From Aureimonas altamirensis (GTDB lineage Bacteria; Pseudomonadota; Alphaproteobacteria; Rhizobiales; Rhizobiaceae): a stretch of 64,000 bases of DNA. Each line of letters starts with the position of its first letter. Within the stretch, counting starts at the first letter, position 1. The DNA lies in the NCBI RefSeq assembly GCF_023702225.1, contig NZ_JAMQCO010000002.1:124001-188000 (forward strand). Reading direction: 5' to 3'. The notes beneath the pieces were generated by a model, which had not been told where the DNA came from, did not search any database, and saw only the letters and a program-made list of their open reading frames with translations. Position numbers and translations under genes: made by a program. This document shows positions 33,738 to 54,504 of the stretch, one piece after another.

Positions 33738-33912
33738 GCCGACGGCAGGTCTCCTGGCTCGCGGGTCTTTCCGCCGTGCCGCCTTCCCGGGGCCGTGTGG
33801 CCCCAGTGGCATAATGGCAAGGCAGTCTCCGCCTACAGTTGCGGGGGCAGCCGCAGCATGGCCGGCTGGCGCACTGCGTTCCCTTTGAAGCCCCTTGCGG
33901 GGCACCGTCGCC
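33738..33912 (-). ncRNA. Cobalamin (adenosylcobalamin-type) riboswitch
   Basis: Read on the minus strand, this leader holds the conserved elements in order: GGTGCC, CAAAGGGAA, GCTGCCCCCGCAACTGTA, GCCACTGGG...GGGAAGGC, and the B12 box AGCCAGGAGACCTGCC (33759-33744). It ends about 60 bases before the btuB start. In this family cobalamin binding shuts off expression of the downstream transporter. The divergent plus-strand glycosyltransferase gene starts beyond its 5' end. Confidence 0.95.
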
Positions 33913-34047
33913 GCGGACCATAGACGCGGCATTTCCGCCTCACAAGCACCCACCGGGCGACAGGGATCCGACTTTCCGGTTGTGCTGCAGCAACGCAACT
34001 GTAACAAGGAGGTGAAGGGGCCGGTGCGGTCCGCGCGGAGTGCAAGG

Positions 34048-37781: not shown

Positions 37782-39116
37782 TCAGGCCTTGACGACGCGG
37801 CTCATGTCCGCACCGGCCTTTTCGAAGGCGTTGCGCGTATCGATGCCCAGCTTCATCACCGAGGCGATCCGCGCATAGTCGACTCCGCCATGGTCCGTCG
37901 CCACAAGCACGGCGTCAAAGGACGCGATGCCGTCATCGTCGAGCAACCGGGAGGCACGTCCCGCAAGATGGGGATGCTCCCGCGTCTTCGGCAACACCGG
38001 GACATGCGGATCGTGATAATCGACATGCGCACCGCGCTCCTCCAGAAGGTCGATCAGGCGCAGCGATGCGCTTTCGCGCGTGTCCTCGACGTCGGGCTTG
38101 TAGGCGACCCCAAGCACGAGGATCCGTGCGCCGTTGAGGCCGCGCCCGCAATGCCTGTCCAGCGCCTCGGCCGTCGCCCGCACCACATGGCGCGGCATAT
38201 CGGTGTTGATCTCGCCGGCCAGTTCGATGAACCGTGTGGCTATATCGTACTCCCGCGCCTTCCATGTCAGGTAGAAGGGATCGATTGGAATGCAGTGTCC
38301 GCCAAGCCCGGGGCCGGGATAGAAGGGCATGAAGCCGAACGGCTTGGTCTTCGCCGCCTCGATCACTTCCCAGATGTCGATGCCCATCGCTCCGTAGACG
38401 AGCTTCAGCTCGTTCATCAGGGCGATGTTGACGGAGCGGAAGATGTTTTCCGTCAGCTTGACCGCCTCCGCCACCCCCGGCGAGGAAACCGGCACGACGG
38501 CCTGCATGGCCGCGCCGTACAGCGCGCTTGCCAGCCGCAAGGCATCCGGGCCGTCGCCCCCCACGACCTTCGGTATGTCGCGCGTCCCGTAATCCCGGTT
38601 CCCCGGGTCTTCCCGTTCCGGCGAAAAGGCCAGGAAGAAGTCCTTGCCGGACAGCATTCCGCCGCCCTCGAGGATGGGCTTGACCAGCTCCAGCGTGGTC
38701 CCCGGCCATGTCGTGGATTCCAGCACGATCAACTGGCCGGGCCGCAGGGATCGGGCGATCTGGCGAACCGACCGCTCGACGAAGGACAGGTCGGGCTCGC
38801 GGTGGCGCGTCAGCGGGGTCGGCACGCAGATCAGGATCGCGTCCGCCTCGCCGGTCCGGGCGAAATCCACCGTGGCCTCGAAGCGCCCTTCCCGGAGTGC
38901 CGCGCCCAGCGCCTCGCCGGAAATGTGCGTGAAACCGCTTTCGCCCCGGTTCAGAAGTGCGACACGATCCGGGTTGATGTCGAAGCCGAGGACCGGAAAG
39001 CCTGCCCGGCACATGGCAAGCGCCAGCGGCAGGCCGACATAGCCGAGGCCGATGATGCCGACTTTCGCGCGGCGCGCCTCCAGGGCCTGCGCCAGTGCAT
39101 TCGCCATATCGGTCAT
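37782..39116 (-). CDS. UDP-N-acetyl-hexosamine dehydrogenase (WbpA/TviB/WecC type)
   Basis: A 444-residue nucleotide-sugar dehydrogenase that oxidises C6 of a UDP-sugar to a uronic acid with NAD. The Rossmann loop is VGIIGLGYVGLPLA. The catalytic Cys is in PGLGGHCIPIDPFYLTW, the GGHC form typical of UDP-GlcNAc/ManNAc-type enzymes rather than the GGSC of UDP-glucose dehydrogenase. VLGVAYKPDVEDTRESAS marks the C-terminal domain. It overlaps the preceding transferase gene by 4 bases, with GGAG ahead of ATG 39116. It supplies an acidic amino sugar for the polysaccharide. Confidence 0.9.
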   Translation of the reverse strand: MTDMANALAQALEARRAKVGIIGLGYVGLPLALAMCRAGFPVLGFDINPDRVALLNRGESGFTHISGEALGAALREGRFEATVDFARTGEADAILICVPTPLTRHREPDLSFVERSVRQIARSLRPGQLIVLESTTWPGTTLELVKPILEGGGMLSGKDFFLAFSPEREDPGNRDYGTRDIPKVVGGDGPDALRLASALYGAAMQAVVPVSSPGVAEAVKLTENIFRSVNIALMNELKLVYGAMGIDIWEVIEAAKTKPFGFMPFYPGPGLGGHCIPIDPFYLTWKAREYDIATRFIELAGEINTDMPRHVVRATAEALDRHCGRGLNGARILVLGVAYKPDVEDTRESASLRLIDLLEERGAHVDYHDPHVPVLPKTREHPHLAGRASRLLDDDGIASFDAVLVATDHGGVDYARIASVMKLGIDTRNAFEKAGADMSRVVKA

Positions 39117-40987
39117 TGCTTGCTCCACAAGTCGTGCGCCGCGCGAAACCGCACGGCCGGATGCCCGGCCGTCAGGGCCAGCAACCTGTCGACGAAACGC
39201 CATGTCGCTCCGTCATGGATGAGATGATGTGTCAGAAGGCCGACCGGCTCGCTTGCATCGGCCAGATCCATGATCCGTGTGACAAGCTGCGCGGGCTCGG
39301 CCAGCCGCTTGCCCCCACGCCAATCCACCGGATCGATATGGGTATTGTGGACGCAAAGCCCTGCAAGGCGATCGGAGCCACGCAGACCGAATGTCGAAAG
39401 CCCTTCGAAACCAATGGCCTGAAGCTGCTTTATAATGTCCTGGTCGATCCTGTTCCATGGCGGCACCATGACCGGCAGGGCCTTGCCGCCGAAGGCGTTC
39501 CGGTGCCGGACCAACCCTTCGCGCAGCGGCGTAATGAAAACATCCGGCGGTGCATGGCCCAGTTCCTGCCTCTTGGCGCCCGCCGGCGCGTTGTCCCGAT
39601 GCTCCAGCCCATGCAGCAGGATATCGACCCCCGGCTCGCCACGCAGGAGAGCAGGCAGCGCCGGGCGGATGAGGAACGGGCTTACGGCCAGCGCCAGCGG
39701 CACGCCGTGTCGCTGCCGCAGGGCCAGCAGACGGCGTAGCTGCGGCGTGTCGTCGGCCGCGTCGTCGTCGCGCCACCAGAGCTCCATGACGGCCCCTTGC
39801 GCATGGAGCGTATCGAGCCTTTCGGCCAGCGCCACCAGGGACGCCTCCGCCGCGTCGCGCCGGCGCACTGCCGCCTCCGCGATCCGGACAGTCTGCCGGG
39901 CGCCATCCGGCGACGCGCCGGGCACCATTCGCGGCAGTTTCAGGCCAGCGCGCACGCCGGCCAAGATGGCAGATCCGCTCGGATCCGCGGCATCCAGCAG
40001 CATGGCCGCGCCACTGGCGGCCAATGCCTCGGCACGCAGGCGTTGCTCCTGCTCGCCACCATCTTCGAAGGGTACGAGAATGGCAGGCGTTCCGGCGGCA
40101 GCCAGATCGGTGGCCGTGTTGTAACCGGCCTGGCTGACGGACAGGCGGGCGGCTGCCAGAAGGGCCGGGAAATCCGGCCGCGCCCGCTCCACCCGTGCGT
40201 TCGACGGCGCACCGGCCAGAAGGCTTTGCATGTCCCGTTCGCCGACGCCGGCCCCCACGAGAATATGCCAGGAAAGATCCGGTGCGGCATGCGCCGCCGC
40301 GACTGCGGCACGGAACAACGGCAGGGCCGCCGCGCTGCCGCCGCCCGAAACGAGGACGTCACCGCCGCCTTCGGCGCTCGGCGCTGCGCCGCGCTGTCTC
40401 GCCACGTATCCCGTATAGGCGAGGAAGGGCTCCAGCCGCTCGCTGACGGGCCACGAACGTGACAAAGGCGTTCGTGCGGCATCGCCGTGGACGAGCACCG
40501 CGTCGTAATGCTCGACGATGCTGGCCTCGGCGCGCTCCGCCTTCTGCGGCCGCGATGGCGGATTCAGGATATCGCGGACCGATGCCATCACGACGGGGCG
40601 CGGCCCCGCCCCTTCGACATAGTCGAGTAATGCTTTAAATTCGAAGCGCAATGCATTGCGCCCAAACGGAAATGTTTCCGTTATGATGCAGTCCGGCCTG
40701 AAGTCGGCTGCGTATCGCACGAGGCGTTCGGCGCGGGCCTCCAGATAAGCGGGGGTGACGGGCCCATCATGCTCGTCGCGCAGGTTCACGAAATCCGTAC
40801 CTTCTGCGTAAACGGCCGGCAATTGCGCCGTCTGAACGCCCCTGCCGGGGCCATGATGGGATTGTCGTCGGCCTCCGGATACGAGGAGCACCGCATGCCC
40901 GGCATCGGCAAAGGATTCGGCCAGGGCGGCGGCGCGGGCGAGATGCCCGACGCCGAGCAGATGGGTTACGGCGATCAGGACACGCAA
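39113..40987 (-). CDS. Glycosyltransferase fused to polysaccharide deacetylase-like domain
   Basis: A 624-residue two-domain protein. Residues 1 to about 390 are a GT28/MurG-like transferase (VLIAVTHLLGVGHLARAAAL; DVLVSGGGSAAALPLF; SVSQAGYNTATDLAAAGTPA). Residues about 395-624 are a NodB-type deacetylase-like domain with WWRDDDA and HGLEHRDN, which fit its metal Asp and His pair. The start is a TTG at 40987: GGGAG lies 7 bases ahead, it overlaps the upstream gene by 13 bases, and it places the first beta-strand at the N-terminus. Joining sugar addition to N-deacetylation suggests synthesis of a partly deacetylated amino-sugar polymer. Confidence 0.8.
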   Translation of the reverse strand: MRVLIAVTHLLGVGHLARAAALAESFADAGHAVLLVSGGRRQSHHGPGRGVQTAQLPAVYAEGTDFVNLRDEHDGPVTPAYLEARAERLVRYAADFRPDCIITETFPFGRNALRFEFKALLDYVEGAGPRPVVMASVRDILNPPSRPQKAERAEASIVEHYDAVLVHGDAARTPLSRSWPVSERLEPFLAYTGYVARQRGAAPSAEGGGDVLVSGGGSAAALPLFRAAVAAAHAAPDLSWHILVGAGVGERDMQSLLAGAPSNARVERARPDFPALLAAARLSVSQAGYNTATDLAAAGTPAILVPFEDGGEQEQRLRAEALAASGAAMLLDAADPSGSAILAGVRAGLKLPRMVPGASPDGARQTVRIAEAAVRRRDAAEASLVALAERLDTLHAQGAVMELWWRDDDAADDTPQLRRLLALRQRHGVPLALAVSPFLIRPALPALLRGEPGVDILLHGLEHRDNAPAGAKRQELGHAPPDVFITPLREGLVRHRNAFGGKALPVMVPPWNRIDQDIIKQLQAIGFEGLSTFGLRGSDRLAGLCVHNTHIDPVDWRGGKRLAEPAQLVTRIMDLADASEPVGLLTHHLIHDGATWRFVDRLLALTAGHPAVRFRAAHDLWSKQ

Positions 40988-42093
40988 GACCGGCTCCCTT
41001 GCGCCGTCAGCCGCCGCAGGCAGGCAGATACCGACGATGCGGCGGCCTCGATGTGATGACGGCTGCGCGCCAGCTCCGCCGCGCCGCGTCCAAGCGCGGC
41101 AAGACGCTCCGGGCCCGACAACAGGCCGCCGAGGGTGCGCGCATAGGCGGCGATGTCGCCTGCCGGGACGAGATATCCGCTCACACCGTCGGCGACCACT
41201 TCGCCGACCCCGCCATAAGCCATGGCAAGGCTTGGACAACCGCTGGCGGCAGCCTCCAAATAGGCCATGCCGAAGGCTTCGTTCACACCGGGCCAGACGA
41301 GGAGGTCGCTTCGGCGGTAGAGCGCGCCAAGGCCGGCAGCGTCCAACCGCCCCGGAAACGCCACCCGCTCGCCGAAGGGCGAAAACAGGGCCTCGACCTG
41401 TGCCTGCGCCGGCCCGTCCCCTGCGATCTCGATCCGCCATCCGTCCGGAACAAGCCGCAGCGCTTCGGCGAGCAGGCCGTAGGAAGCGAGTTTGTCGCCT
41501 GTCCGCATCATGGCCGCGCAGGCCAGCCGGACCGGTGTGCCGATGCTCCGGCCGGCCTTGCAAGGCCATTCGGATGTATCGACGAATGGTGGAAGGGCAA
41601 GGATGTCCCGCACGCCGACGGCCTTCAGCCCGGCGCGGTCGCGGCCGTTCAGCAGCAGGTGAAGGTCGGCGGTACGGTTGGCCTCGTCCGCCAGCGCCGA
41701 GAAGCGCGCATAGGGCCCGCTGCCCCGCTTGCCCGCGCTGGAACCCTCGGCAACCACATAGGGAATACCGAAATGGGCGCTGACGCGCGGCCCGATCAGA
41801 TCCGGAGCCTTGTAGTAGTTGTGATAGGTAAACCAGGCCGAAGGCGGCGGCCCGGCAACGAGGCGCCGCACCTCACTCTCGGCCTGCGACAGGATCGCAT
41901 CCTGCGCATCGGCCGCGCCGACGCCGTCACGGCTGGAAAAACGCGTCGCAAGCACCGGGGATGTGCCTGCCAGTTCGAGCGCGCGCATCCACAGGCGCGC
42001 CATGGTCCGGTCGCCGGAGGGCACCGGATGGTCCGGCGCCTTCATTGGTGCATGAAAGGCGACCGGACCGTTTCGAGACGCTGATGAACGCAT
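40975..42093 (-). CDS. Glycosyltransferase family 4 protein
   Basis: A 372-residue GT-B transferase. VAFHAPMKAPDHPVPSGDR forms the acceptor-side loop, and the C-terminal GT4 domain has GRLDAAGLGALYRRSDLLVWPG and EAFGMAYLEAAASGCPSLA, the EX7E motif. The ATG at 42093 (GTG 42108 is also open) leaves the canonical first strand intact. It starts 87 bases from the divergent pseudo-ABC gene and overlaps the fused transferase-deacetylase gene by 13 bases. It belongs to the same sugar-assembly operon. Confidence 0.83.
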   Translation of the reverse strand: MRSSASRNGPVAFHAPMKAPDHPVPSGDRTMARLWMRALELAGTSPVLATRFSSRDGVGAADAQDAILSQAESEVRRLVAGPPPSAWFTYHNYYKAPDLIGPRVSAHFGIPYVVAEGSSAGKRGSGPYARFSALADEANRTADLHLLLNGRDRAGLKAVGVRDILALPPFVDTSEWPCKAGRSIGTPVRLACAAMMRTGDKLASYGLLAEALRLVPDGWRIEIAGDGPAQAQVEALFSPFGERVAFPGRLDAAGLGALYRRSDLLVWPGVNEAFGMAYLEAAASGCPSLAMAYGGVGEVVADGVSGYLVPAGDIAAYARTLGGLLSGPERLAALGRGAAELARSRHHIEAAASSVSACLRRLTAQGSRSCVS

Positions 42094-42180
42094 GCTCGCA
42101 CTTCGCACAAGAAACGACTACCTGTCGTACTTCTCCGCTGCTAGCGTTGGCAAGGCAGCTACGCAGGTAACGAACCGTTC

Positions 42181-44922
42181 ATGGCGCCATCCCTTTACAG
42201 CTATCTGTGGAAGCACACGAAACGCCAGCAGCTCTGGATGCTGGTGATCGTGATCGTTTCGGTGGTGCCGCTCTATCTGTCGCTGAACCTGCCCAAGCTC
42301 ATCATCAACGGGCCGATCCAGGGCTCGGGCTTCGAGGATGGCAGTACCGACACCTACTTCCGCTGGACCCTGCCCGATTTCCTGCCCGCGCTCCGCGGGG
42401 CGGACGTCTATTCCGGCCTGGAGCTGGAGCGCCTCCAGGCGCTTTACATCCTGTCCGCGCTGTTCCTCGGGCTGGTCATCGTCAATGGCGCGTTCAAATA
42501 CTACCTGAACATCTACAAGGGCCGGCTCGGCGAGCGGATGCTGCGGCGGCTGCGCTTCGAGATGGTCGACCGGGTTCTGCGGTTTCCCATGCGACGGCTT
42601 CGGCGCATACGCCCTGCCGAAATCGCCAGCATGGTGAAGGACGAGCTGGAGCCGATCGGCGGCTTCATCGGCGACGCCGTCATCCAGCCGATCTACCTGA
42701 TGAGCCAGATCCTGACGGCGATGGTGTTCATTTTCGTGCAGAGTTTCACGCTCGGCCTCGTGGCACTGGCTGTCATGGGATTGCAGGTCGTGGTGATTCC
42801 GCGGATGAGGCGCCGGCTGCTGATCCTGGGCAGACAGCGCCAGTTGGCCGCGCGGCGGCTTGCCGGCAGCGTCGGCGAGATCGTGGAGGGCATGCCGGCC
42901 ATCCGCACCAACGATGTATCCAACTTCGTGCGGGCCCGCGTCTCGGACGAGCTGGGCCGCATCTTCCTGATCCGGTTCGACATTTATCAGTGGAAGTTTT
43001 TCGTCAAGTTTCTCAACAACTTCCTGTCGCAGGCAACGCCCTTCATCTTCTATCTGTTCGGCGGCTATTTCGCCATAACGGGGCAGATGGACATCGGGGC
43101 GCTGGTGGCCACCATCGCCGCCTACCGCGAGCTTCCCTCGCCGCTGAAAGACCTGATCGACTGGGATCTGACGCGACTCGACGTCAACGTGAAATACGAA
43201 CAGGTGATGGACCAGTTCTACGTCGACGGTCTCCTGAACCCGCGCTCGCAGGCGCAGGGCGACGGAGAGGTGCCGCATCTTGCCGGGCCGCTGCGCCTGG
43301 AGGGCGTGACCATCCGCGACGAAACGGGCATCCTCCTTGCCAACGCCATCGACCTCGACCTGCCGCTGACACAGCAGGTGGCGGCGACAGGCCCCGTCGG
43401 CGATGGTGCGGAAAGCGTGGCCGAGGCTCTGGCGCTCCTGTCGCAGCCGGCCGAGGGTGCGATCACCGATGGCGGACGGCCGCTGGCGGACTTGCCCGAG
43501 CGTATCACCGGACGGCGCATCGCCTTCGTCGATACGACGACCTACTTCCCGCAATCGAGCCTCAGGGCGGCCCTCTTCTATCCGCTGATGCACCGGCTGG
43601 AAGACAAGCTCCCGCCGGCCGTTACCCGGCGGGAGCAACTCGCCCGCGCCGAATCCATCGCTTCGGGCAACAGCGTGGAGACGCCGGAAGGCGATTGGGT
43701 GGACCATACCGCGATCGGCGCCGGCCCCGATGAAAGGCTTGCTGCGATCCGGGAGGTTCTGGAGATCACGCAGCTGACGCGCGACGTCAAGCGCATCGGC
43801 CTGGCCTCCCTGGTGCCGGCGGCGCTGATATCCGGCGCGGAAACGCCCATCCTGCGGGCGCGGGCCGATTTCAGCGCGCGGCTGCAGGAGCGCGGGCTTG
43901 CCAAGGCGGTCCAGCTCTTCACGCCGGACGCCTATCTTTCCGATGCGACGATCATCGAAAACATCGTCTTCGGCGCGATGCGCGGCGAGGAATCGATGGC
44001 CTCCCAGTTGATCGCACTCGTCGAGGTACGCAACATCATCCTTTCCAGCGGGCTGGATGCGCCATTGGCCGACATGGGGCGCAAGATGGCCGAGACACTG
44101 GTGGAGGTGTTCGGCGGCATGGGCGAAGGCAACCCCTTGTTCCGGCGCATGTCCATCGGCTCCGCCGAGGAGATCGAGGCGCTCCGCGCCCTCCTTGCGC
44201 GCATCGAGGGCCGCCCCACCGGCGCGGCGGAGCTGGACGACAGGCGGCAGCTTATCCGCCTGGCGCTCGGTTATGCCGAACCGCGCTACCGGTTGGGCCT
44301 GCTCGACGCCACGCTGAAGCAGCGCATCATCGACGCGCGCCGCTCGCTGCATGCTGGGGCGTCCGATACGCTCCTGGCGGAGGTGGACCTGTACGAACCG
44401 GGCGAGTTCAACCCGTCGGCGACCATCCGGGACAATATCGTGTTCGGCCGCGTCGGCGAGGTCACGTCCGCCACCAGCGATGCGCTGGACGAGATCCTGG
44501 TGGATGTCATCAACGGCAACGGCCTGTCGGACATCGTCCTGGAGGCGGCGCTGGATTACGATATCGGGTCCGGCGCCAAAAGACTGACGGTCAGCCAGCA
44601 GCAGCGCCTGGCCCTGGCGCGCGCCATTCTCAAGGCGCCGGACTACCTTGTCGCCAATCGCTGCCTGTCGTCTCTCGACGGCAACCTGCAACAGAAGATC
44701 GTCGCGGCGACCCTGGCGCGCGGACGCGACGAGAAGCGTCCCTTCGGGGTGTTCTGGGTGGTCGGCAACCTGGCCGTCACCTCGCAGTTCGAGCGGCTGG
44801 TCAGCTTCAAGGGCGGACGCATCGTGGAAGACAAGGCCCTTGCCGAGGATGCGGCATTGGGCCAATCTCCGGTAGAGGCCCTACGCCGCGAAGCGCGTCA
44901 AGCAAGGGGAGCCACCCCATGA
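42181..44922 (+). CDS. ABC-exporter-like membrane protein with degenerate (pseudo) ATPase domain
   Basis: A 913-residue protein. Residues 1 to about 350 are a type I exporter transmembrane domain (GRLGERMLRRLRFEMVDRVLRF, KDELEPIGGFIGDAVIQP). After it the nucleotide-binding domain has lost every catalytic motif. The P-loop reads GPVGDGAES (404-412, Lys replaced by Ala410), the signature VSQQQ (804-808), Walker B LVANR with Asn826 and Arg827 for Asp-Glu, and the H-loop Gly. SSLD (830-833) remains. Between P-loop and signature are about 390 residues with three Q-loop-like copies (TTTYFPQSSL 452-461; DATIIENIVFG 588-598; SATIRDNIVFG 746-756). It cannot hydrolyse ATP in the usual way and probably works as a regulated scaffold or channel. 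It overlaps the cyclic-nucleotide-binding gene by 4 bases. Confidence 0.82.
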   Translation: MAPSLYSYLWKHTKRQQLWMLVIVIVSVVPLYLSLNLPKLIINGPIQGSGFEDGSTDTYFRWTLPDFLPALRGADVYSGLELERLQALYILSALFLGLVIVNGAFKYYLNIYKGRLGERMLRRLRFEMVDRVLRFPMRRLRRIRPAEIASMVKDELEPIGGFIGDAVIQPIYLMSQILTAMVFIFVQSFTLGLVALAVMGLQVVVIPRMRRRLLILGRQRQLAARRLAGSVGEIVEGMPAIRTNDVSNFVRARVSDELGRIFLIRFDIYQWKFFVKFLNNFLSQATPFIFYLFGGYFAITGQMDIGALVATIAAYRELPSPLKDLIDWDLTRLDVNVKYEQVMDQFYVDGLLNPRSQAQGDGEVPHLAGPLRLEGVTIRDETGILLANAIDLDLPLTQQVAATGPVGDGAESVAEALALLSQPAEGAITDGGRPLADLPERITGRRIAFVDTTTYFPQSSLRAALFYPLMHRLEDKLPPAVTRREQLARAESIASGNSVETPEGDWVDHTAIGAGPDERLAAIREVLEITQLTRDVKRIGLASLVPAALISGAETPILRARADFSARLQERGLAKAVQLFTPDAYLSDATIIENIVFGAMRGEESMASQLIALVEVRNIILSSGLDAPLADMGRKMAETLVEVFGGMGEGNPLFRRMSIGSAEEIEALRALLARIEGRPTGAAELDDRRQLIRLALGYAEPRYRLGLLDATLKQRIIDARRSLHAGASDTLLAEVDLYEPGEFNPSATIRDNIVFGRVGEVTSATSDALDEILVDVINGNGLSDIVLEAALDYDIGSGAKRLTVSQQQRLALARAILKAPDYLVANRCLSSLDGNLQQKIVAATLARGRDEKRPFGVFWVVGNLAVTSQFERLVSFKGGRIVEDKALAEDAALGQSPVEALRREARQARGATP

Positions 44923-45386
44923 GCCTGTTGACGGACGAAGTCGAAGTCCTTCGCCGCAGCCCGATGTTCGCAGGCGTGGAAACGCCGCAGTTGAAGCTGC
45001 TTGCCTATACCGGCGAGATGGTACGCTTCGATGCGGGCGAAATCCTGTTCCGGCAGGGCGATCCGGGCGACAGTGCCTATGTCATCCTGTCGGGCGAGGT
45101 CGTGGTGCTGGCGGAGTCTCCCATCGGCCCTATCCAGCTTGCGCGCCTCGGGCAGCATGAGATCGTGGGGGAAATCGGCATATTGTGCGACGTTCCCCGC
45201 ACCGCGACGGTGCAGGCGGCCACGCCGCTGCGCAGCCTGCGCATCGCCAAGGATTGCCTGGCCGAAATGCTGGAGAGTTTTCCGGGCATGGCGCTTGCCA
45301 TGCTGCGGGAACTGGCACAGCGCCTCAGCCGCACATCGGCCGAGCTGGTGATGTTGCGCGGCGAAGGCGAGCGACCGGACATGTAA
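44919..45386 (+). CDS. Cyclic nucleotide-binding domain protein, stand-alone
   Basis: A 155-residue protein consisting of one cNMP-binding domain. The phosphate-binding cassette is VGEIGILCDVPRTATV, with E85 (ribose contact) and R94 (phosphate contact) both present, so it should still bind cAMP or cGMP. There is no helix-turn-helix, so it is not a CRP-type transcription factor. Its ATG overlaps the stop of the pseudo-ABC gene (ATGA), which suggests the two products act together, the cNMP domain sensing and the membrane protein responding. The metallo-hydrolase gene follows after 10 bases. Confidence 0.88.
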   Translation: MSLLTDEVEVLRRSPMFAGVETPQLKLLAYTGEMVRFDAGEILFRQGDPGDSAYVILSGEVVVLAESPIGPIQLARLGQHEIVGEIGILCDVPRTATVQAATPLRSLRIAKDCLAEMLESFPGMALAMLRELAQRLSRTSAELVMLRGEGERPDM

Positions 45387-45396
45387 AGCAGGCGCC

Positions 45397-46278
45397 ATGA
45401 CATCGAAACAGCGGATCGGGGCGTTCGACGGATTGCGCCTCACCATTTTCGGCGCGCGCGGAACCATTCCCTCCGCGCCTGACGACCCGAGCGAATTCGG
45501 CGCCCGAAGCTGCTGCGTCCTGGTGGAGGCGGACGGCAGGCCGCTGGTCTTCGATGCCGGTTCCGGCGTCGTGGAGTGCGGGCGGGCGCTGGCTGCGGAC
45601 GGCTGGGCCGACGTGGACCTGTTCTTCGGCCACATGCATTACGACCATATCATCGGCCTGCCCTACTTCATGCCGATGTACGATCCGGCAGCCTGCGTCC
45701 GCATCCATGCCGGGCACATGCTGGACGATGCCTCATGCGAGGCCCTGGTGCGGGACTTCATGCGCGCCCCCTTCCACCCCGTGGGTGTCGAATCGCTGAA
45801 GGCACGGTTGAGCTTCGTGACCTTCCGGCCGGGGGATACCCTGCATCCAAGCCCGCGAACGACGATCACGACCTACCGGCTCACCCATCCGAACGGCGCC
45901 GTCGCCTACCGTATCGAACATGCGGGGCGCTGCATCGTCTATGCCACGGACCACGAGCACACGCCCGGCACCGTGGATGAGGCGCTGACGGACTTCGTCC
46001 GGAACGCGGACCTTTTGGTCTACGACACCACCTACAGCGACGCCGAGATGGAGCGCTTTCGCGGTTACGGCCATTCCTCGCACGAGGAAGGGGTACGCTT
46101 GTGCAAGCGGGCCGGCGTCGGCCAACTGGTGCTGTTCCACCATTCGTTCAAGCATTCCGACGCGGTCCTGCGCGAGACTGAAGCCGCCTGTCGCGCGGTC
46201 TTTCCAGGCACGACAGCGGCACGCATCGGCCAGGTGTTCGAGCTTCCCGCCCGCAAAGGCACATCGGATGAGCATTGA
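45397..46278 (+). CDS. Metallo-beta-lactamase-fold hydrolase (possible cyclic nucleotide phosphodiesterase)
   Basis: A 293-residue MBL-fold protein with the di-metal motif HMHYDH (H79, H81, D83, H84), then YATDHEHTPG and GYGHSSHEEG with further ligands. Its start LRLTIFGARGTIPSAP and GARSCCVLVEADG are like the RNase Z/PhnP/class II phosphodiesterase branch. Lying between a cNMP-binding gene and a cyclase gene, it may degrade the cyclic nucleotide. That is inference: MBL enzymes cleave many phosphodiesters and other substrates. It overlaps the cyclase gene by 11 bases. Confidence 0.82.
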   Translation: MTSKQRIGAFDGLRLTIFGARGTIPSAPDDPSEFGARSCCVLVEADGRPLVFDAGSGVVECGRALAADGWADVDLFFGHMHYDHIIGLPYFMPMYDPAACVRIHAGHMLDDASCEALVRDFMRAPFHPVGVESLKARLSFVTFRPGDTLHPSPRTTITTYRLTHPNGAVAYRIEHAGRCIVYATDHEHTPGTVDEALTDFVRNADLLVYDTTYSDAEMERFRGYGHSSHEEGVRLCKRAGVGQLVLFHHSFKHSDAVLRETEAACRAVFPGTTAARIGQVFELPARKGTSDEH

Positions 46279-47506
46279 CCGGGAAAGCCTGCACGAGCTC
46301 GGCGAATGGATGGTCGGGGAGATGCTCGCCGATGCGCGGCTGAAATCCGTTGTACCGGAGCTGGCGCGACGCCTGACGGCGCTGGGCGTGCCGGTGCATC
46401 GCTGCCGTCTGACCTGGCCGACGCTTCATCCCCTGTTCGAGGCCGAGACCCTGTTGTGGACCGCCGAATTCGGCGTGACCAGCCAAAGCTTCGACCGCGA
46501 GCGCGTGGACGATACGGCCTGGCGCCAGAGCACCGTCAAATGGATGCTGGACAACGGCTCCAACCTGATGCGCGCGCGGCTCGACGGACCCACGCCAGAC
46601 CCGACCTTCCCGCTTTACGACGAATTGCGCGAGGAGTCCTTCGTGGACTTCATCGCGCTTCGCACACAGCTCTTCGCCGACGATTCCATGCTGCGGCAGG
46701 AAAGCTCCGACCTGGATTTCGGGCTGTACGTCGCCTGGGCGACGAAGGATCCGGCGGGATTCTCGCCGGACGCCGCCGAGCTTCTGGAGTATATCCAGCG
46801 CTATGTCGCCATGGTGTGCAAGTCGCTGGCGCTGCCTCGGCTGATCTTCGGCGTCGCCAATACCTATCTCGGCCCCACCATCGCGCGCGAAGTGCTGGGC
46901 GGGCGCATAACGCTGGGCAGCGGCAGCCAGGTACGAGCCCTGATCTGGTATTCGGACCTGCGCGATTCCACCGCGCTGGCGGAAGCGATGGGCAGCGAGC
47001 CCTATCTGGCGTTGCTCAACGACTATTTCGACTGCACCGGACGCGCCGTGGTGGAGGCGGGCGGGGAAATCCTCGCCTTCGTCGGCGATGCCGTCATGGC
47101 GATCTTCCCGATTTCGGACGCAGCCTTCAGCGAAAGGCAGGCTTCGCTTCTGGGCATGCAGGCGGCGGACGCGGCCCTGGCGGCGGCCGAGCACGTCAAT
47201 GCGCGGCGGACTTCAGAGGGCCAACCGCCCATCCGTTTCGGTATCGCCATGTGTGTCGGCGAAGTCCGGCTCGGCAATATCGGTATTCGCCAGCGCCTGT
47301 CCTTCTCGGTCATCGGCCCCAGCGCCAACGAGGTCGAGCGCATGGAGAAGATGACGAAGACCATGCGGGTTCGCGTCCTGGCAACCGAGGAGATCGCCGA
47401 AGTCGCGCCGCATCGCTGGCAAGCCATGGGGCCCGTGCCCCTGCGCGGCTTCCGCGACGCCGTCCCGCTGTTTGCCCTCGTTCCACCCGGCAAAACTGCA
47501 GATTGA
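46268..47506 (+). CDS. Class III adenylate/guanylate cyclase
   Basis: A 412-residue soluble cyclase. The N-terminal half (about 1-210) is an uncharacterised sensor-like region with WTAEFGVTSQSFDRERVDD. The C-terminal half is a CHD domain. Metal Asp residues are D230 (WYSDLRDST) and D274 (LAFVGDAVM). Transition-state N354 and R358 are in GPSANEVERM. So the catalytic core is complete, but the residue before FVGD, usually the adenine-selecting Lys, is Ala270, and its partner position is Ser347. Substrate choice is therefore uncertain. No membrane segment is seen. It is the last gene of the four-gene cyclic-nucleotide operon. Confidence 0.88.
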   Translation: MSIDRESLHELGEWMVGEMLADARLKSVVPELARRLTALGVPVHRCRLTWPTLHPLFEAETLLWTAEFGVTSQSFDRERVDDTAWRQSTVKWMLDNGSNLMRARLDGPTPDPTFPLYDELREESFVDFIALRTQLFADDSMLRQESSDLDFGLYVAWATKDPAGFSPDAAELLEYIQRYVAMVCKSLALPRLIFGVANTYLGPTIAREVLGGRITLGSGSQVRALIWYSDLRDSTALAEAMGSEPYLALLNDYFDCTGRAVVEAGGEILAFVGDAVMAIFPISDAAFSERQASLLGMQAADAALAAAEHVNARRTSEGQPPIRFGIAMCVGEVRLGNIGIRQRLSFSVIGPSANEVERMEKMTKTMRVRVLATEEIAEVAPHRWQAMGPVPLRGFRDAVPLFALVPPGKTAD

Positions 47507-47533: not shown

Positions 47534-47618
47534 ACCGTAGCCCGTCACCATCATACAACTGCAATTGACGCGACTTATGGTTTGCCTGCCTATGAACCGG
47601 CAGAAAGGTTTGGCATCC

Positions 47619-48959
47619 ATGCGCATTGCTATGATCGGTTGCGGCTACGTCGGGCTCGTCTCTGGCGCATGCCTTGCGGACTTCGGACATGACGTTACCG
47701 CCGTCGACAGGGATTCCAGTCGCATCCAGGCGCTGGATACCGGCGTGATGCCGATCTTCGAGCCGGGGCTGGACCAGCTCGTGGCAACCAACGTCTCTGC
47801 CGGACGCCTGCGCTTTTCGCATGACATGCAATCATCGGTCGCGGACGCCGACGTGGTCTTCATCGCCGTCGGCACCCCCTCGCGGCGTGGCGACGGCCAC
47901 GCCGACATCAGTTTCGTTGAATCTGCGGTTGAAGGCATCGCCCCACATCTCAAGCCGGGCGCGGTCGTGGCCACCAAGTCGACCGTGCCGGTCGGCACCG
48001 GGGACAGGATCGCCGTGCAACTGGCCCGCCTAGCGCCCGGACGGACCGTTTCCGTCGTCTCCAACCCGGAGTTCCTGCGCCAGGGCGCCGCGATCGAGGA
48101 TTTCTGCCGCCCCGACAGGATCGTCGTCGGCACCGAGGACGCGCACGGACGGACCGTCATGGAGGCGGTGTACGGTCCCCTGTCGATCAACCGCGCGCCG
48201 ATCCTGTTTACCGGCCGGCGCGATGCGGAGTTGGTCAAGTATGCCGGCAACGCCTTTCTGGCGATGAAGATCGAGTTCATCAACGAAATGGCGGATCTGT
48301 GCGAAAGGCTGGGCGCGGACGTGCAGGAGGTTGCGCGCGGCATCGGGCTGGACAACCGGATCGGCCCGAAATTCCTGCATGCCGGCCCCGGCTATGGCGG
48401 CTCGTGCTTCCCCAAGGACACGCAGGCGCTTCTGGAAACGGCACGCGCCCATGGCGCGCCGCTGGCGCTGGTGGAAGCCACCGTCGCGGGCAACCTGGCG
48501 CGCAAGGAAGGGCTCGCCGCCCGGGTGGCGCATGCCTTCGGTGGCAGTGTGGACGGCCTGCGCGTGGCGCTGCTGGGCCTGTCCTTCAAGCCCAATACCG
48601 ACGACATGCGCGAAGCCCCCTCCATCCCCCTTGCACAGGCCCTCCAGGCCGCCGGGGCGGAGGTGACGGCAACCGACCCGCGCGCCATGGACAACGCGCG
48701 CGGCCTGTTGCCCGGCGTCCGAATGGTGGAAGATGCCTACGAAGCGGCAAAGGGCGCGGACGCTGTGGTACTGGTGACCGAGTGGAATGCCTATCGTGCG
48801 CTGGATCTCGCAGCCATGTCGGCCCGCATGCGCGGCCGGATCTTCGTGGACCTGCGCAACGTCTACAGCCGCGATGCGATGGCCGGGCACGGGCTGATCC
48901 ATCATGGAGTCGGGCGCGGCCCGGCGGCAACCGCCCTTCCCCTGCAGCGTCAGGCGTAG
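47619..48959 (+). CDS. ugd: UDP-glucose 6-dehydrogenase
   Basis: A 446-residue enzyme oxidising UDP-glucose to UDP-glucuronate with 2 NAD. It starts at MRIAMIGCGYVGLVSGACLAD, the standard family N-terminus, with AAAGG about 11 bases ahead; an ATG 27 bases upstream is less likely. EFINEMADLCE and the catalytic Cys in GPGYGGSCFPKDT are present, followed by LGLSFKPNTDDMREAPS in the C-terminal domain. With the convergent epimerase (10-base overlap at the 3' ends) it can supply UDP-glucuronate and UDP-galacturonate for the surface polysaccharide. Confidence 0.93.
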   Translation: MRIAMIGCGYVGLVSGACLADFGHDVTAVDRDSSRIQALDTGVMPIFEPGLDQLVATNVSAGRLRFSHDMQSSVADADVVFIAVGTPSRRGDGHADISFVESAVEGIAPHLKPGAVVATKSTVPVGTGDRIAVQLARLAPGRTVSVVSNPEFLRQGAAIEDFCRPDRIVVGTEDAHGRTVMEAVYGPLSINRAPILFTGRRDAELVKYAGNAFLAMKIEFINEMADLCERLGADVQEVARGIGLDNRIGPKFLHAGPGYGGSCFPKDTQALLETARAHGAPLALVEATVAGNLARKEGLAARVAHAFGGSVDGLRVALLGLSFKPNTDDMREAPSIPLAQALQAAGAEVTATDPRAMDNARGLLPGVRMVEDAYEAAKGADAVVLVTEWNAYRALDLAAMSARMRGRIFVDLRNVYSRDAMAGHGLIHHGVGRGPAATALPLQRQA

Positions 48960-49954
48960 CGGAAGCCTTGCGCGCGATACCAGTCCACGAATTTCGGGAT
49001 ACCCCCGGCGATCGGCGTCTGCGGCGCGTACCCCGTCAGGCTGCGGAGCAGCCGCGTGTCGGCGAAGGTGGCCTCGGAATCGCCAGCCGGCATCGGACGG
49101 TACCGCTTGTTCGCCGTCACACCGGCCGCCTTCTCGATTTCCGCGACGAAGTCCATCAGCCCGACCGGCTGGCCACCGCCGGCATTGACGACGCGATAGG
49201 GCGCCACGGGGCTCAGCGTATCGCCCTCGACGCGTCGACCCTGGCCGGGCGCGGCCTCCATCAGGCGGGCCATCGCCTCGACCAGGTCGTCTATGTAGGT
49301 GAAGTCCCGCAGGCTGGACCCGTTGTTGTTGATGTCCAGCGGTTCGCCGGACAGGATGCGCCGGGCGAAGATGTAATAGGCCATGTCGGGCCTGCCCCAG
49401 GGCCCATAAACGGTAAAAAACCGCACGGCCGTGGTGGGTATCGCGTAGAGATGGGCATAGGAATGCGCCATCAACTCTCCCGCGCCCTTGCTGGCGGCAT
49501 AGATGGTCAGCGGCTCGGCAGTACGGGCGCGCTCATCGAAGGGCATGGCCGTACTGGCACCGTAGATGCTGCTGGTGGATGCCAGCACCAGATGCGCGGG
49601 CGTATGGGCCCGGCATGCTTCCAGCATGTTGAATGTGCCGACGATATTGGCCCCCACATAGGCTTGCGGATGCGTGATCGAGTGACGCACTCCCGCCTGC
49701 GCCGCCAGATGGAAGACGATTTCGGGCCGCTCTTGTGCGAAGAGCGAAAGAAGCTCCGCTCCGTTCTCGACATCCAGGCCGACGAAGCGGAAGCCGTTCC
49801 GCCCTTCGATCTCGGCCAGCCGGGCGCGCTTGAGGGCCGGGTCGTAATAGGGCGACAGATTGTCGAGCCCCGTCACCGCATGACCAGCGTCGAGCAGCCG
49901 GCGCGCCAGATGGAAGCCGATGAAGCCGGCGCAACCGGTAATGAGAATACGCAT
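48950..49954 (-). CDS. NAD-dependent nucleotide-sugar epimerase (UDP-glucuronate 4-epimerase-like)
   Basis: A 334-residue extended short-chain dehydrogenase. MRILITGCAGFIGFHLARRLL is the NAD-binding loop. ASTSSIYG and the catalytic YAASK follow, and RFFTVYGPWGRPDMAYYIFA is the conserved block of UDP-glucuronate 4-epimerases. LRDFTYIDDLVEAM also fits. Next to a UDP-glucose dehydrogenase, conversion of UDP-glucuronate to UDP-galacturonate is the likely reaction. It overlaps that gene tail to tail by 10 bases and starts 14 bases from the divergent phosphatase gene. Confidence 0.9.
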   Translation of the reverse strand: MRILITGCAGFIGFHLARRLLDAGHAVTGLDNLSPYYDPALKRARLAEIEGRNGFRFVGLDVENGAELLSLFAQERPEIVFHLAAQAGVRHSITHPQAYVGANIVGTFNMLEACRAHTPAHLVLASTSSIYGASTAMPFDERARTAEPLTIYAASKGAGELMAHSYAHLYAIPTTAVRFFTVYGPWGRPDMAYYIFARRILSGEPLDINNNGSSLRDFTYIDDLVEAMARLMEAAPGQGRRVEGDTLSPVAPYRVVNAGGGQPVGLMDFVAEIEKAAGVTANKRYRPMPAGDSEATFADTRLLRSLTGYAPQTPIAGGIPKFVDWYRAQGFRYA

Positions 49955-49968
49955 GAACGGCCCCGCGG

Positions 49969-50595
49969 ATGGTGATGATGCAACCCGATAGCGCGGCAAG
50001 GGGCGCAGGCATAGGGCAGCGCCGTCGCTTTCTGGTTTTGCGCCATGCGCCCACCGCCTGGAATGCGGAGGGCCGCATACAGGGGCGGACCGATTGCCCG
50101 CTGTCCGCCGAAGGGCTGGAACAGGCGCTCTCATGGCGCGTGCCGGCGGGATTTTCCGGTGCCCCCTGTCTCAGCAGCCCGCTGCGGCGCTGCCTCGACA
50201 CGGCACGCGCCATGGGCCTGTCGCCCATAGTCGAGGAAAGGCTCGTGGAGATGGACTGGGGAACGCTCGAAGGCGCGACGCTTGCCGGGATGCGTGCCGA
50301 TGGCGGCGAGGATTTCTCGCGCCGCGAGGCCGCCGGCCTCGATTTCCGCCCATCGGGCGGCGAAACGCCGCGGGAAACCGGTGCGCGCGCCCTGGCGGTG
50401 CTGGCCGAAGCGCCCGCGGACGCCGTCATCGTGACGCACAAGGGCGTCATGCGCGCCTTGCTCGCCTTGGCGACGGACTGGGACATGGTGGGCAAGCCGC
50501 CGGTCCGCTTTCCGGGCGATGGCCATGCACTGATGCTGGAATGGCGGGACGGCGCCCTGTACCTTCAACCCGGCAGTGTGGATATGCGCAACTGA
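49969..50595 (+). CDS. Histidine phosphatase family protein
   Basis: A 208-residue member of the phosphoglycerate mutase-like histidine phosphatases. The catalytic motif is LRHAPTAWN (RHG changed to RHA, which still keeps Arg-His) near residue 25. EMDWGTLEG provides the acid, and VTHKGVMRAL has the second His. Substrates in this branch range from phosphosugars to alpha-ribazole phosphate. Several ATG codons lie at the start; 49969 is the longest and 49978 is an alternative. It is divergent from the epimerase gene by 14 bases and 42 bases before the ABC gene. Confidence 0.82.
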   Translation: MVMMQPDSAARGAGIGQRRRFLVLRHAPTAWNAEGRIQGRTDCPLSAEGLEQALSWRVPAGFSGAPCLSSPLRRCLDTARAMGLSPIVEERLVEMDWGTLEGATLAGMRADGGEDFSRREAAGLDFRPSGGETPRETGARALAVLAEAPADAVIVTHKGVMRALLALATDWDMVGKPPVRFPGDGHALMLEWRDGALYLQPGSVDMRN

Positions 50596-50637: not shown

Positions 50638-53274
50638 ATGGACGACCTCCTCCGCATCGAAGACCTGATCGTCGATTTCCATGCGCCATCCGGCCGGGTG
50701 CGCGCCGTCGGCGGCGTATCCTTCCGCGTGCCGCGCGGCGGCACGGTTGCGCTGGTCGGCGAATCGGGCTCCGGCAAATCCGTCACGGCGCACGCCATCA
50801 TGGGTCTTCTGCCGGGCGCGGCCCGCATGGAAGCCGGCCGCATCCTGTTCGAAGACGGCAAGTCCGGAACGCTCGACCTTGCCGCCCTTCCGCCGCTGTC
50901 CGATGCCTTCACGGCCCTGCGCGGCGCGCGCATATCGATGATCTTCCAGGAGCCGTCGACATCCTTCTCCGCCTTCCACACGATCGGCGCGCAGATCGTC
51001 GAGGCGCTGATGCTGCACGAGAAGGTCGATGCGGGACAGGCCCGGATCCGGGCGATCGACGCGCTCGCGGCCGTGGGCTTCCGGCAGCCGGAACGGCAGA
51101 TCGACGCCTATCCGTTCGAATTGTCCGGCGGCCTGAACCAGCGCGCGATGATAGCGATGGCCACCATAACCCGCCCGGCGCTGTTGATCGCCGACGAGCC
51201 GACGACGGCGCTGGACGTGACGGTACAGGCCGAGATCCTGCGCCTGCTTCGCGATCTCCAGCGCGACCATGGCACGGCCATCCTGTTGATCGCGCACGAT
51301 CTCGGCGTGGTCGCCAACCTCGCCGACGAAATGGTGGTGATGCACCATGGGCGCGTGATGGAAAGCGGCATGGCCGACGAACTCTTCGCCCAGCCGCGCC
51401 ACCCCTATCTCAAGGCCCTGGTGGGCGCCGTGCCGCGCCTGGGCATGCCGCGCGGCGAACGGTTGAAACCGCTGCGCGACATCACGGTTCCTCTGCCCCC
51501 GATGGCCGGCAAGCCGGCTGCCGCCCCCACGGTGCTGCTTCGGGTGGACGGTTTGCAGAAGCGTTTTGCCGGGCGCAAGGCCGGGCTGTGGCCGGGCCGG
51601 GCGGCAGGGACCGCGCCGCTGGCCGTCAACGACGTGTCCTTCGAGATCCGGCGCGGCGAATGCCTGGGCCTTGTCGGAGAAAGCGGAAGCGGCAAGACGA
51701 CCGTCGCGCGTATCCTGGCGCGCACCATCGAGGCGGATGCGGGAAGCATCCGCATGGCCGATCCGGACGGCGGCGAAACCGATGTCCTGGCGCTCGACGG
51801 AGATGCCCTGCGCCATTGGCGGCGGCGCATCCAGTTCGTGTTCCAGAACCCCTATTCGGCGCTCAATCCGCGCATGACGGTCGGCTCCATCGTCGCCGAA
51901 CCGCTGAAGATCCACAAGATCGGCACGCCGGCCAGCCGGCGGGATCGGGCGCTGGACCTCCTCGGGCTGGTGGGCCTCGACGAAAGCCACATGGCCCGAT
52001 ATCCGCACAGCTTTTCCGGCGGCCAGCGCCAGCGCATCGGCATCGCGCGGGCGCTGGCGCTGGAGCCGGAACTGCTCGTGCTAGACGAGCCGGTCTCCGC
52101 GCTGGACGTTTCGGTGCAGGCGCAGATCCTCAACCTGCTGCGCGACCTGAAGGACAAGCTCGGCATCACCTGCCTGTTCATCTCGCACAATCTGGCCGTC
52201 GTGGACTATCTGGCCGACCGCATCGCCGTCATGTCGGGCGGACGGCTGGTGGAAACGGCGCCGCGCGCCGCGCTGTTCGCCGATCCGCGCCACCCGTATA
52301 CGCGCTCGCTGATCCGCGCCGTGCCCGAGCCGGACCCGAACAACCGGCTTGATCTCGACGCCATCGGCCTGACGCAGTCGGGGCCCTCGCAATGGGGCGC
52401 CGATTTCCTGCCCGACGCCGCGGGGACGGAACCGGGCATGGTCCCGGTGGGTCCGGACCATGCCGTGCGAGCCCACCGCGCTCCGACCGGAGCGGACCTC
52501 GGCGGACGAAGTCCGGCGGAGCACCGGGAGATCGAGCACGCCATCGCCACCGACCCGAAGGGCGAAGCCACGGTCCATCTGGATTTCGAAAGCGGCACGC
52601 TGGACGGCTGGAGCACGCGGCGGCTTGCAGGGCCATGGTCGGCCCGGACCGACGATTCCCGCGCCCGCATCGGGCGCTATTCGTGCCGCTTCGAGCTTCG
52701 GCCGCAGGACAATGTCAGCCAGGGCAATCGCGCCGAATTGCGCGACTGGTGGAACGCGCGCCTCGACACGGAATGCTGGTACGGCTTCTCCACCTTCCTG
52801 CCCCTCGACTTTGCGCCACCCGCCGGCACAGGGATCGTGCTGGCGCAGTGGCATGACCAGGCAAGGCTGGGCGAGCCGTCCGGCAAGCCGCCCATCGCCC
52901 TTCGCTATCGCGACGGGCTGTTGCGCTTCACCGGCGCCGCCGGGGCGGTCGCATCGTCCGACCCGGAGATCGTCTATCTGTTCGGCGAAGCCGCGGCGAC
53001 CCCTGGCGCGTGGATGGACTTCGCGCTGCGCGTTCGCTGGCCGGGCAGCGGCGACGGCGCCGTGGAATGCCTTTTGAATGGCGAAAGCCTGTTCCGCTTC
53101 GATGGCCCCCTCGGCTACCGCAACCAGACGCTCGGCCCCTACTTCAAGTTCGGCCTGTATGCGAGCGGCCCCTTCACCGAGCCGCTCGTCGCCTGGCACG
53201 ACAACTACAGCCGCGGTGGCACCTATGCCGCCGTAGACCCATCCATACACCACGAAGCACGGGAAACCGTCTGA
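50638..53274 (+). CDS. Fused double ABC ATPase (DppD-DppF type) with C-terminal polysaccharide-lyase-like domain
   Basis: An 878-residue protein. Two complete ATPase domains of the oligopeptide/nickel class are in tandem: Walker A GESGSGKS (41-48) and GESGSGKT (347-354), signatures LSGGLNQR and FSGGQRQR, Walker [13 protein letters not shown] and [12 protein letters not shown]. Each ends with the HPYLKAL or HPYTRSL tail of the family. After the normal end ([11 protein letters not shown], about residue 615) the frame continues into about 235 residues resembling PF14099 heparin-lyase-I-like proteins ([13 protein letters not shown] at 646-658; [28 protein letters not shown]). A lyase domain on a cytoplasmic ATPase is unusual. 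It begins the importer operon that runs to 58586. Confidence 0.85.
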
Positions 53275-54488: not shown

Positions 54489-54504
54489 GCGGAGATTGCA
54501 TCGC

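What the first reader, a model, noticed from the sequence alone, without database searches (positions are those of the whole stretch)
42181..47506. Four-gene cyclic-nucleotide circuit built around a membrane pseudo-ABC protein
A degenerate ABC-exporter-like protein, a stand-alone cNMP-binding protein with intact ligand residues, an MBL-fold hydrolase and a class III cyclase are joined by a 4-base overlap, a 10-base gap and an 11-base overlap. Together these could be synthesis, sensing, degradation and a membrane output of a cyclic nucleotide in one operon, set among polysaccharide genes. I know of no named system with this make-up. The link to polysaccharide export is inference from position.
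Basis: partly seen in the sequence, partly recalled or inferred. Interest (0 to 1): 0.88.

Follow-up and report, generated by a model that had tools for sequence, protein, structure and literature searches.

The report
Dead transporter paired with nucleotide sensor
A membrane protein built like an ATP-driven exporter but with a broken engine is inherited together with a cyclic-nucleotide sensor, a signal-making and probably a signal-destroying enzyme, and sugar-coat genes in many alphaproteobacteria, which suggests an undescribed way of controlling the cell's sugar coat.

Summary
Four overlapping or touching genes encode an ATPase-dead ABC-exporter protein (ABC), a stand-alone cyclic-nucleotide-binding protein (CNB), an MBL-fold hydrolase and a class III cyclase, inside a glycan cluster of an Aureimonas genome. 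ABC is in 128 of 385 sampled Alphaproteobacteria; 127 of the 128 also have a class III cyclase, 117 the MBL, 122 the neighbouring GT28 glycosyltransferase. CNB is in 105 of 106 and 50 of 53 loci read, nearly always adjacent or fused. Within Aureimonas the MBL is in 11 of 11 genomes with ABC and 0 of 10 without. In the mainly rhizobial set the ATP-binding lysine is absent from 106 of 106 ABC proteins; the CNB phosphate-binding arginine is present in 155 of 155. The model is an ABC-exporter fold with a triplicated helical insert. In Sinorhizobium meliloti the matching cluster is very probably the uncharacterised PPP surface-polysaccharide locus. Best reading: a cyclic-nucleotide-controlled pseudo-ABC module governing a conserved surface glycan. 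The core is ABC+CNB+glycosyltransferases; adjacency of cyclase and MBL is lineage-specific. Ligand, enzyme activities and gating are untested.

The parts
42181..44922 (+). Pseudo-ABC membrane protein (ABC): type IV exporter transmembrane domain plus one nucleotide-binding domain that lacks the Walker A Lys, Walker B Asp, catalytic Glu and switch His, with a triplicated helical insert
44919..45386 (+). CNB: stand-alone cyclic-nucleotide-binding domain with C-terminal helix, no DNA-binding domain found; phosphate-binding cassette GEIGILCDVPRTAT intact
45397..46278 (+). MBL-fold metallo-hydrolase, metal ligands present; candidate cyclic-nucleotide phosphodiesterase
46268..47506 (+). Class III nucleotidyl cyclase with an N-terminal mixed alpha/beta domain; metal Asp residues and Asn/Arg present, base-recognising Lys replaced by Ala
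42109..42180 (.). 72-base intergenic region between the divergent GT4m/GT28b genes (- strand) and the ABC operon (+ strand)
   Evidence: coordinates; no sigma-70-like site found
33895..35304 (+). GT28p: GT28-type glycosyltransferase (MJ1255/VC2487-like), co-inherited with ABC; profile match 34093-35262, so the true start is probably further in
35159..36553 (+). GT4p: GT4 glycosyltransferase (EpsE-like); start uncertain
37782..39203 (-). Nucleotide-sugar dehydrogenase
39113..41569 (-). GT28b glycosyltransferase (profile match 39881-40987) with polysaccharide-deacetylase-like part (39128-39832); ORF start uncertain
40975..42108 (-). GT4m glycosyltransferase
47604..48959 (+). UDP-glucose 6-dehydrogenase-like
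48950..50134 (-). NAD-dependent sugar epimerase
49969..50595 (+). Histidine phosphatase; a histidine phosphatase also recurs near the glycosyltransferases in other families
50638..53274 (+). Opp-type double ABC ATPase fused to a polysaccharide lyase domain (PF14099)
54289..56421 (+). Opp-type substrate-binding protein (start uncertain)
56428..57426 (+). Opp-type permease
57426..58574 (+). Second Opp-type permease (profile match only; gene limits not set)

Best explanation
The operon is a cyclic-nucleotide-controlled membrane module of a conserved alphaproteobacterial surface glycan. Shown: ABC has an ABC-exporter fold (predicted model) and lacks the residues an ordinary ABC ATPase needs; CNB keeps its ligand residues and is tied to ABC by adjacency, fusion and co-inheritance; glycosyltransferases, a class III cyclase and the MBL are co-inherited with the pair. 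Inferred: the cyclase makes a cyclic mononucleotide (cAMP or cGMP; cUMP/cCMP not excluded); CNB binds it and docks on the cytosolic dead nucleotide-binding domain of an ABC dimer; this shifts the transmembrane domain and switches on assembly or translocation of the glycan; MBL hydrolyses the signal and resets the switch.
Against: No binding, activity or interaction data. Class-level associations are not corrected for phylogeny, nor for small genomes that lack everything. Cyclase within 10 kb in only 54 of 106 and 6 of 53 loci, MBL in 56 of 106 and 2 of 53, so they need not be dedicated to this module; 64 genomes have the MBL and 122 a cyclase without ABC. The window cyclase lacks the base-recognising Lys (Ala), so product and activity are uncertain. 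33 of 53 set B ABC proteins keep the Walker A Lys and 33 of 53 the Glu, so ATP binding may persist there. G168 keeps ABC and glycosyltransferases without CNB, so ABC can have a role without the sensor. In two genomes CNB sits with GT28p and not with ABC. The S. meliloti cyaA mutant had only a small MIC change (0.74 against 1.47 ug/mL). The passages read do not say whether ABC, CNB, MBL or cyclase are among the nine genes.
Confidence: 0.6

Rival explanations
1. ABC is a true but unconventional transporter (for example one half of a heterodimer with an active ABC partner, or still ATP-binding); CNB only modulates it and the dead motifs mark a degenerate site.
For: Predicted fold is a complete exporter; 33 of 53 set B proteins keep the Walker A Lys and 33 of 53 the catalytic Glu.
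Against: In set A Lys 0/106, Asp 3/106, Glu 0/106; switch His 0/106 in the column where set B has it in 21 of 53 (4 of 106 have His one column on). No full-length second exporter of this kind was seen beside it: extra ABC-profile hits occur in 80 of 106 and 9 of 53 loci, and those printed (all 9 of set B, a part of the 80) are short stretches of at most 95 bits (several in the Opp ATPase), except L215, where one gene is split. Partners elsewhere in the genome were not searched.
Confidence: 0.2
2. CNB acts on the glycosyltransferases (allosteric control of glycan synthesis) and ABC is only a scaffold in the same complex.
For: In two genomes where ABC lies elsewhere CNB stays beside GT28p (G147, G217); GT28p is co-inherited with ABC.
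Against: ABC-CNB fusions in 6 of 159 loci and no fusion of CNB with any of the glycosyltransferase profiles in the same 159.
Confidence: 0.15
3. Co-location only: a glycan cluster with a housekeeping cAMP receptor and cyclase nearby, MBL being an RNase Z-like or glycan-related hydrolase.
For: MBL is below the cut-off of every NCBIfam model listed for it (NF041851 64.0 of 400); cyclase and MBL are not near ABC in many loci.
Against: Joint presence and absence within one genus and the MBL-cyclase association among genomes without ABC (size-confounded).
Confidence: 0.12
4. A Pycsar-like anti-phage signalling system.
For: PADLOC PycC models hit the cyclase (E 7e-19) and Pycsar effector models hit CNB (E 4.5e-14).
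Against: These are the shared cyclase and cNMP domains; ABC and MBL hit no PADLOC model; the setting is a conserved glycan cluster in 128 of 385 genomes, not a sporadic island.
Confidence: 0.03

Closest known systems
S. meliloti PPP (phazolicin-protecting polysaccharide) locus smb21252-smb21271 (Travin et al. 2023, PMC10128002)
   Same: Very probably the same cluster: glycosyltransferases, polysaccharide deacetylase, MBL, cyclase, lyase, Opp-type importer, pseudo-ABC, CNB; position fits locus tags SMb21284 (a polysaccharide deacetylase, as puuE) and SMb21286-88 (purine genes) just beyond it.
   Different: In the passages read the locus is named only as polysaccharide biosynthesis; the pseudo-ABC, CNB, cyclase and MBL are not discussed. 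The strain 1021 record carried no annotation, so the tag match is by gene order, not by coordinates.
MsbA / type IV ABC exporters
   Same: Fold and best NCBIfam hit (TIGR02203, E 6.9e-32).
   Different: ATPase motifs lost, 110.7 bits against a cut-off of 602; about 300 extra residues in the nucleotide-binding domain, with three repeats of a helical segment.
CFTR and SUR (ABC proteins turned channel or regulator; recalled)
   Same: ABC exporter fold used for something other than ordinary pumping, under second-messenger control.
   Different: No close sequence tie was found; a cNMP-binding partner here, not phosphorylation or a Kir channel. KATP and SUR entries appear among the structural matches only as ABC proteins.
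c-di-GMP-controlled polysaccharide systems (PilZ-type receptors such as Alg44 and BcsA; recalled)
   Same: Second-messenger receptor acting on a polysaccharide machine.
   Different: A mononucleotide-binding domain and a dead ABC exporter in place of PilZ and synthase.
Pycsar anti-phage systems
   Same: Class III-type cyclase plus cNMP-binding partner.
   Different: Genomic setting, membrane partner and MBL differ; no ABC or MBL hit.

Membership tests
Type IV ABC exporter (MsbA/ABCB) | Six-helix exporter transmembrane domain plus nucleotide-binding domain fold | tested here: met
Type IV ABC exporter (MsbA/ABCB) | Walker A Lys, Walker B Asp, catalytic Glu, switch His | tested here: not met
   Window has Ala, Asn, Arg and Gly; set A Lys 0/106, Asp 3/106, Glu 0/106
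MsbA lipid A exporter (TIGR02203) | Score over curated cut-off | tested here: not met
   110.7 of 602 bits
Cyclic-nucleotide-binding domain (PF00027) | Phosphate-binding cassette Glu and Arg | tested here: met
   73.2 bits over 27.5; Arg 155/155, Glu or Asp 155/155
CRP/FNR transcription factor | C-terminal helix-turn-helix | tested here: not met
   155 aa, only PF00027 found in Pfam at E<=0.01; CRP NCBIfam 39.9 of 266 bits
Class III nucleotidyl cyclase (PF00211) | Catalytic fold and two metal-binding Asp residues | tested here: met
Class III adenylyl cyclase | Base-recognising Lys | tested here: not met
   Ala in the window; Lys in 23 of 61 neighbourhood cyclases
Cyclic nucleotide-degrading phosphodiesterase NF041851 | Score over curated cut-off | tested here: not met
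   64.0 of 400 bits
MBL-fold metallo-hydrolase | HxHxDH and further metal ligands | tested here: met
   59 of 59
MBL cyclic-nucleotide phosphodiesterase (function) | Hydrolysis of cAMP or cGMP | not testable with these tools
   Only indirect: co-distribution with cyclases
S. meliloti PPP locus | Same gene set in S. meliloti within smb21252-smb21271 | tested here: inconclusive
   Gene set matches; locus tags matched only by order from anchor genes
Pycsar | Uridylate/cytidylate cyclase with dedicated toxic effector | tested here: inconclusive
   PycC and effector models hit CYC and CNB, not ABC or MBL; product not testable

The most novel reading that the evidence does not exclude
A cyclic-nucleotide-gated ABC exporter: in a family found in about a third of sampled Alphaproteobacteria, an exporter has lost ATP as its input (fully so in the rhizobial branch) and taken a cAMP/cGMP-binding subunit, separate or fused, as the new one, with the triplicated helical module of the dead nucleotide-binding domain as docking surface; it works as a ligand-gated flippase, channel or assembly switch for a so far unknown conserved surface glycan.
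Probability: 0.3. Interest if true: 0.93.

Novelty: new variant of a known kind. Interest (0 to 1): 0.8.

Why it matters
As I recall it, the known targets of cAMP/cGMP in bacteria are mostly transcription factors; a widespread membrane target would add a post-translational branch. It would name a likely control step for an uncharacterised surface polysaccharide that protects S. meliloti from a peptide antibiotic, and give a natural case of an ABC exporter that lost its ATPase motifs but kept its fold under strong conservation. Because a laboratory strain (S. meliloti 1021/2011) carries the set, the idea is testable at once.

Tried and rejected
Ordinary ABC exporter: rejected for this lineage because the ATPase motifs are lost together. 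CNB as a transcription factor: rejected, no DNA-binding domain found. Obligate four-gene operon: rejected as a class-wide description; four in succession in 22 of 106 set A loci, only ABC+CNB near-universal. Independent scatter: rejected by co-inheritance. Pycsar: kept as a weak rival. DUF3095 as a second cyclase: suggestive motif match only, hhalign E 0.007 but probability 5%. Promoter scan: 0 sigma-70-like sites, 4 terminator-like against 4.1 by chance. Literature: ten full-text searches of the open-licence PMC library. Two gave nothing; in 92, 62 papers held four or more terms and only 20 were listed, none of these 20 with the term 'cyclic nucleotide-binding domain'; in 115 none of 7 held 'cyclic nucleotide-binding protein'. 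No listed paper, by title and opening abstract, describes the pseudo-ABC/CNB pair; subscription papers are not held, so absence from print is not established. Fusion origin: the tree needs at least two changes, so repeated independent fusion is not claimed. Foldseek of the cyclase never ran; VIA was used, and its rows barely test the N-terminal domain, so that domain stays unidentified.

Limits of counts. Set A = window plus 107 loci (L030-L136) minus two duplicates (L036, L042) = 106: mostly Rhizobiales, with a few others (for example L059, L134, L135). Set B = 53 genomes, one per family, of the 128 hit genomes, own genome excluded. Flanks differ: none at some contig ends (L058, L156), about 6.5 kb upstream and 8.5 kb downstream in most of set B, so MBL and cyclase 'within 10 kb' counts there are lower bounds. 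Of the 91 genomes for which I entered both an ABC and a printed MBL place (the MBL listing was cut), MBL lies 13-23 kb from ABC on the same contig in 36, farther on the same contig in 15, on another contig in 40. Residue counts include a few gapped rows.
Full report
Anatomy. The window is G000:C12:124001-188000. The genus is taken to be Aureimonas: same-genus genome G009 matches Aureimonas jatrophae NZ_FNIT01000002.1 in contig length and hit position. The ABC operon starts 72 bases from divergent GT4m and GT28b/deacetylase genes. Around it lie GT28p, GT4p, nucleotide-sugar dehydrogenases, an epimerase, a histidine phosphatase, an FkbM-type methyltransferase and an Opp-type importer whose ATPase is fused to a polysaccharide lyase.

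Conservation in the genus and nearby. ABC is found in 27 of 61 genomes (own plus 60 relatives), 11 of 21 in the genus. In the 26 other loci CNB adjoins ABC or is fused to it in 26 of 26; by tblastn MBL is in the fetched stretch in 22 of 26. The order ABC-CNB-MBL-cyclase recurs in all 10 other Aureimonas loci of that sample, with gaps of -4 to 88 bases by script-chosen starts. Within Aureimonas (21 genomes of 3.5-5.2 Mb) MBL at E<=1e-20 is in 11 of 11 with ABC and 0 of 10 without; a PF00211 cyclase is in 11 of 11 and 1 of 10. Six of the 11 have exactly one PF00211 match; in the window's genome it is the operon's own. No class I cyclase was found in the 13 Aureimonas genomes searched for PF01295 (CYTH-type cyclases were not tested). 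A CNB match of 86 bits or more is in 27 of 27 genomes with ABC and in none of 34 without, other hits being under 80 bits. MBL over the 61: 24 of 27 with ABC, 1 of 34 without.

Conservation in the class. In 385 evenly drawn Alphaproteobacteria ABC (E<=1e-50) is in 128, in 85 of 277 genera. Co-inheritance: PF00211 127 of 128 with ABC against 122 of 257 without; MBL 117 of 128 against 64 of 257; GT28p (E<=1e-40) 122 of 128 against 5 of 257. These tests ignore phylogeny, and many of the listed genomes without a match are small, so the first two are inflated; the within-genus contrast and the GT28p contrast are least affected. The single genome with ABC but no cyclase, G168 (2.0 Mb), also lacks CNB and MBL matches yet keeps glycosyltransferases. 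Among genomes without ABC a cyclase is in 58 of 64 with MBL and 64 of 193 without, the best hint that MBL handles cyclic nucleotides, again confounded by size. A scan of GTDB genomes gave at least 558 relatives, 80 kept, including one gammaproteobacterium, Plasticicumulans; 262 plasmid records, mostly rhizobial, carry it.

Neighbourhood counts within 10 kb. Set A, 106 loci: CNB 105, GT4p 77, GT28b 77, GT28p 69, Opp binding protein 66, MBL 56, any cyclase 54, GT4m 52, deacetylase 51. Set B, 53 loci from 53 families: CNB 50, GT28p 38, GT4p 38, GT28b 34, GT4m 34, deacetylase 25, any cyclase 6, MBL 2 (short flanks). In direct succession on one strand: ABC-CNB-MBL in 44 of 106 and all four in 22 of 106 set A loci. 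Six ABC-CNB fusions in the 159 (L054, L173, L180, L199, L216, L219). Of the set B misses, G147 and G217 have CNB beside GT28p and G168 has none. Among 67 loci clustered for further neighbours (set B plus 14) a histidine-phosphatase-type ORF recurs in 29 and a Methyltransf_17-type ORF in 23.

Residues. Set A ABC: Lys of Walker A 0 of 106, Walker B Asp 3 of 106, catalytic Glu 0 of 106, switch His 0 of 106 in the column where set B has it in 21 of 53. Set B: Lys 33 of 53, though 42 of 53 have Asp/Glu at the next position where Ser/Thr is usual; Asp 5 of 53; Glu 33 of 53. So decay is graded, and complete in the mainly rhizobial set. CNB: Arg 155 of 155; Glu 147 and Asp 8 of 155; Thr after the Arg 144 of 155, a residue recalled to favour cGMP in PKG-type domains but not decisive. 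MBL metal ligands 59 of 59. Cyclase metal Asp 61 of 61 and 60 of 61; base-recognising position Lys 23, Ser 16, Ala 13 of 61; the window has Ala.

Known biology. In S. meliloti RCAM1750 the annotated cluster runs deacetylase, MBL, sugar dehydrogenase, cyclase, a hypothetical protein (lyase by profile), Opp importer, a hypothetical protein (GT28p by profile), GT4p, then, unannotated, GT28b in two frames, a methyltransferase, ABC, CNB (annotated as Crp/Fnr) and FkbM, followed by purine genes up to puuE and xdh. Strain 1021 has the ABC gene at pSymB 841723-844435. SMb21284 is listed as a polysaccharide deacetylase (PMC2848241, passage), as PuuE would be, and SMb21286-88 as purine metabolism genes, with xdhA2/xdhB2 named elsewhere in the text (PMC5596199, passages), so counting back places the cluster at about smb21252-smb21271; this mapping is inference. 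Travin et al. (PMC10128002: outline, passages, part of the reference list) report nine genes in that interval needed under phazolicin, MIC 0.18 ug/mL for smb21252 and smb21265 mutants against 1.47, strong depletion of cyaA insertions in the screen with a small MIC effect of the cyaA mutant (0.74), and name the product PPP, provisional and uncharacterised. PMC10315480 (passage) reports seven of the nine up-regulated under Myxococcus attack. Neither text, in what I read, discusses a pseudo-ABC or a cNMP receptor.

Mechanism, with status. Cyclase makes the signal: family and metal residues shown, product unknown. CNB binds it: ligand residues shown, binding inferred. CNB acts on ABC: fusion, adjacency and co-inheritance shown, contact inferred. 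ABC controls assembly or translocation of the glycan: co-inheritance with GT28p shown and, in S. meliloti, place in a probable surface-polysaccharide locus; action inferred. MBL ends the signal: co-distribution shown, activity inferred. I give the whole chain 0.6, and 0.3 to the strong form in which cyclic nucleotide has replaced ATP as the input of an exporter. The recount changed some wording and counts, not these odds.

Noticed in passing
window 50638-53274 (+); also L030, L031, L057: Opp-type double ABC ATPase joined to a polysaccharide lyase domain (PF14099) in the window as one ORF, with the same juxtaposition by tblastn in L030, L031 and L057; in Phyllobacterium (L138) the lyase is a separate gene.
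   Followed up: partly
L041, L060, L068, L107 and others (20 of 106 set A loci): DUF3095 (PF11294) recurs near the pseudo-ABC; its ADIVxST and FGGDGA motifs align with the two metal Asp motifs of the cyclases (hhalign E 0.007, probability 5%): perhaps a divergent nucleotidyl cyclase.
   Followed up: partly
L138:23181-24923 and 18 of 106 set A loci within 10 kb: A second cyclase type, in L138 with an N-terminal 2Fe-2S (Fer2) domain, sits in many of these clusters, suggesting a redox or iron input.
   Followed up: no
L059 (Plasticicumulans lactativorans): A gammaproteobacterium carries ABC-CNB with cyclase, lyase and DUF3095 hits nearby: probable horizontal transfer.
   Followed up: no
L201 (G168): A 2.0 Mb genome keeps the pseudo-ABC and glycosyltransferases but shows no CNB, cyclase or MBL match, a natural test of what ABC does alone.
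   Followed up: partly
window 39113-41569 (-): GT28b glycosyltransferase and polysaccharide deacetylase, separate genes in Phyllobacterium (L138), lie in one ORF in this genome.
   Followed up: no
L138:18308-20074 (-): A 588-aa metallophosphoesterase lies between CNB and MBL in a subset of loci (MPE within 10 kb in 11 of 106), possibly a second phosphodiesterase.
   Followed up: no
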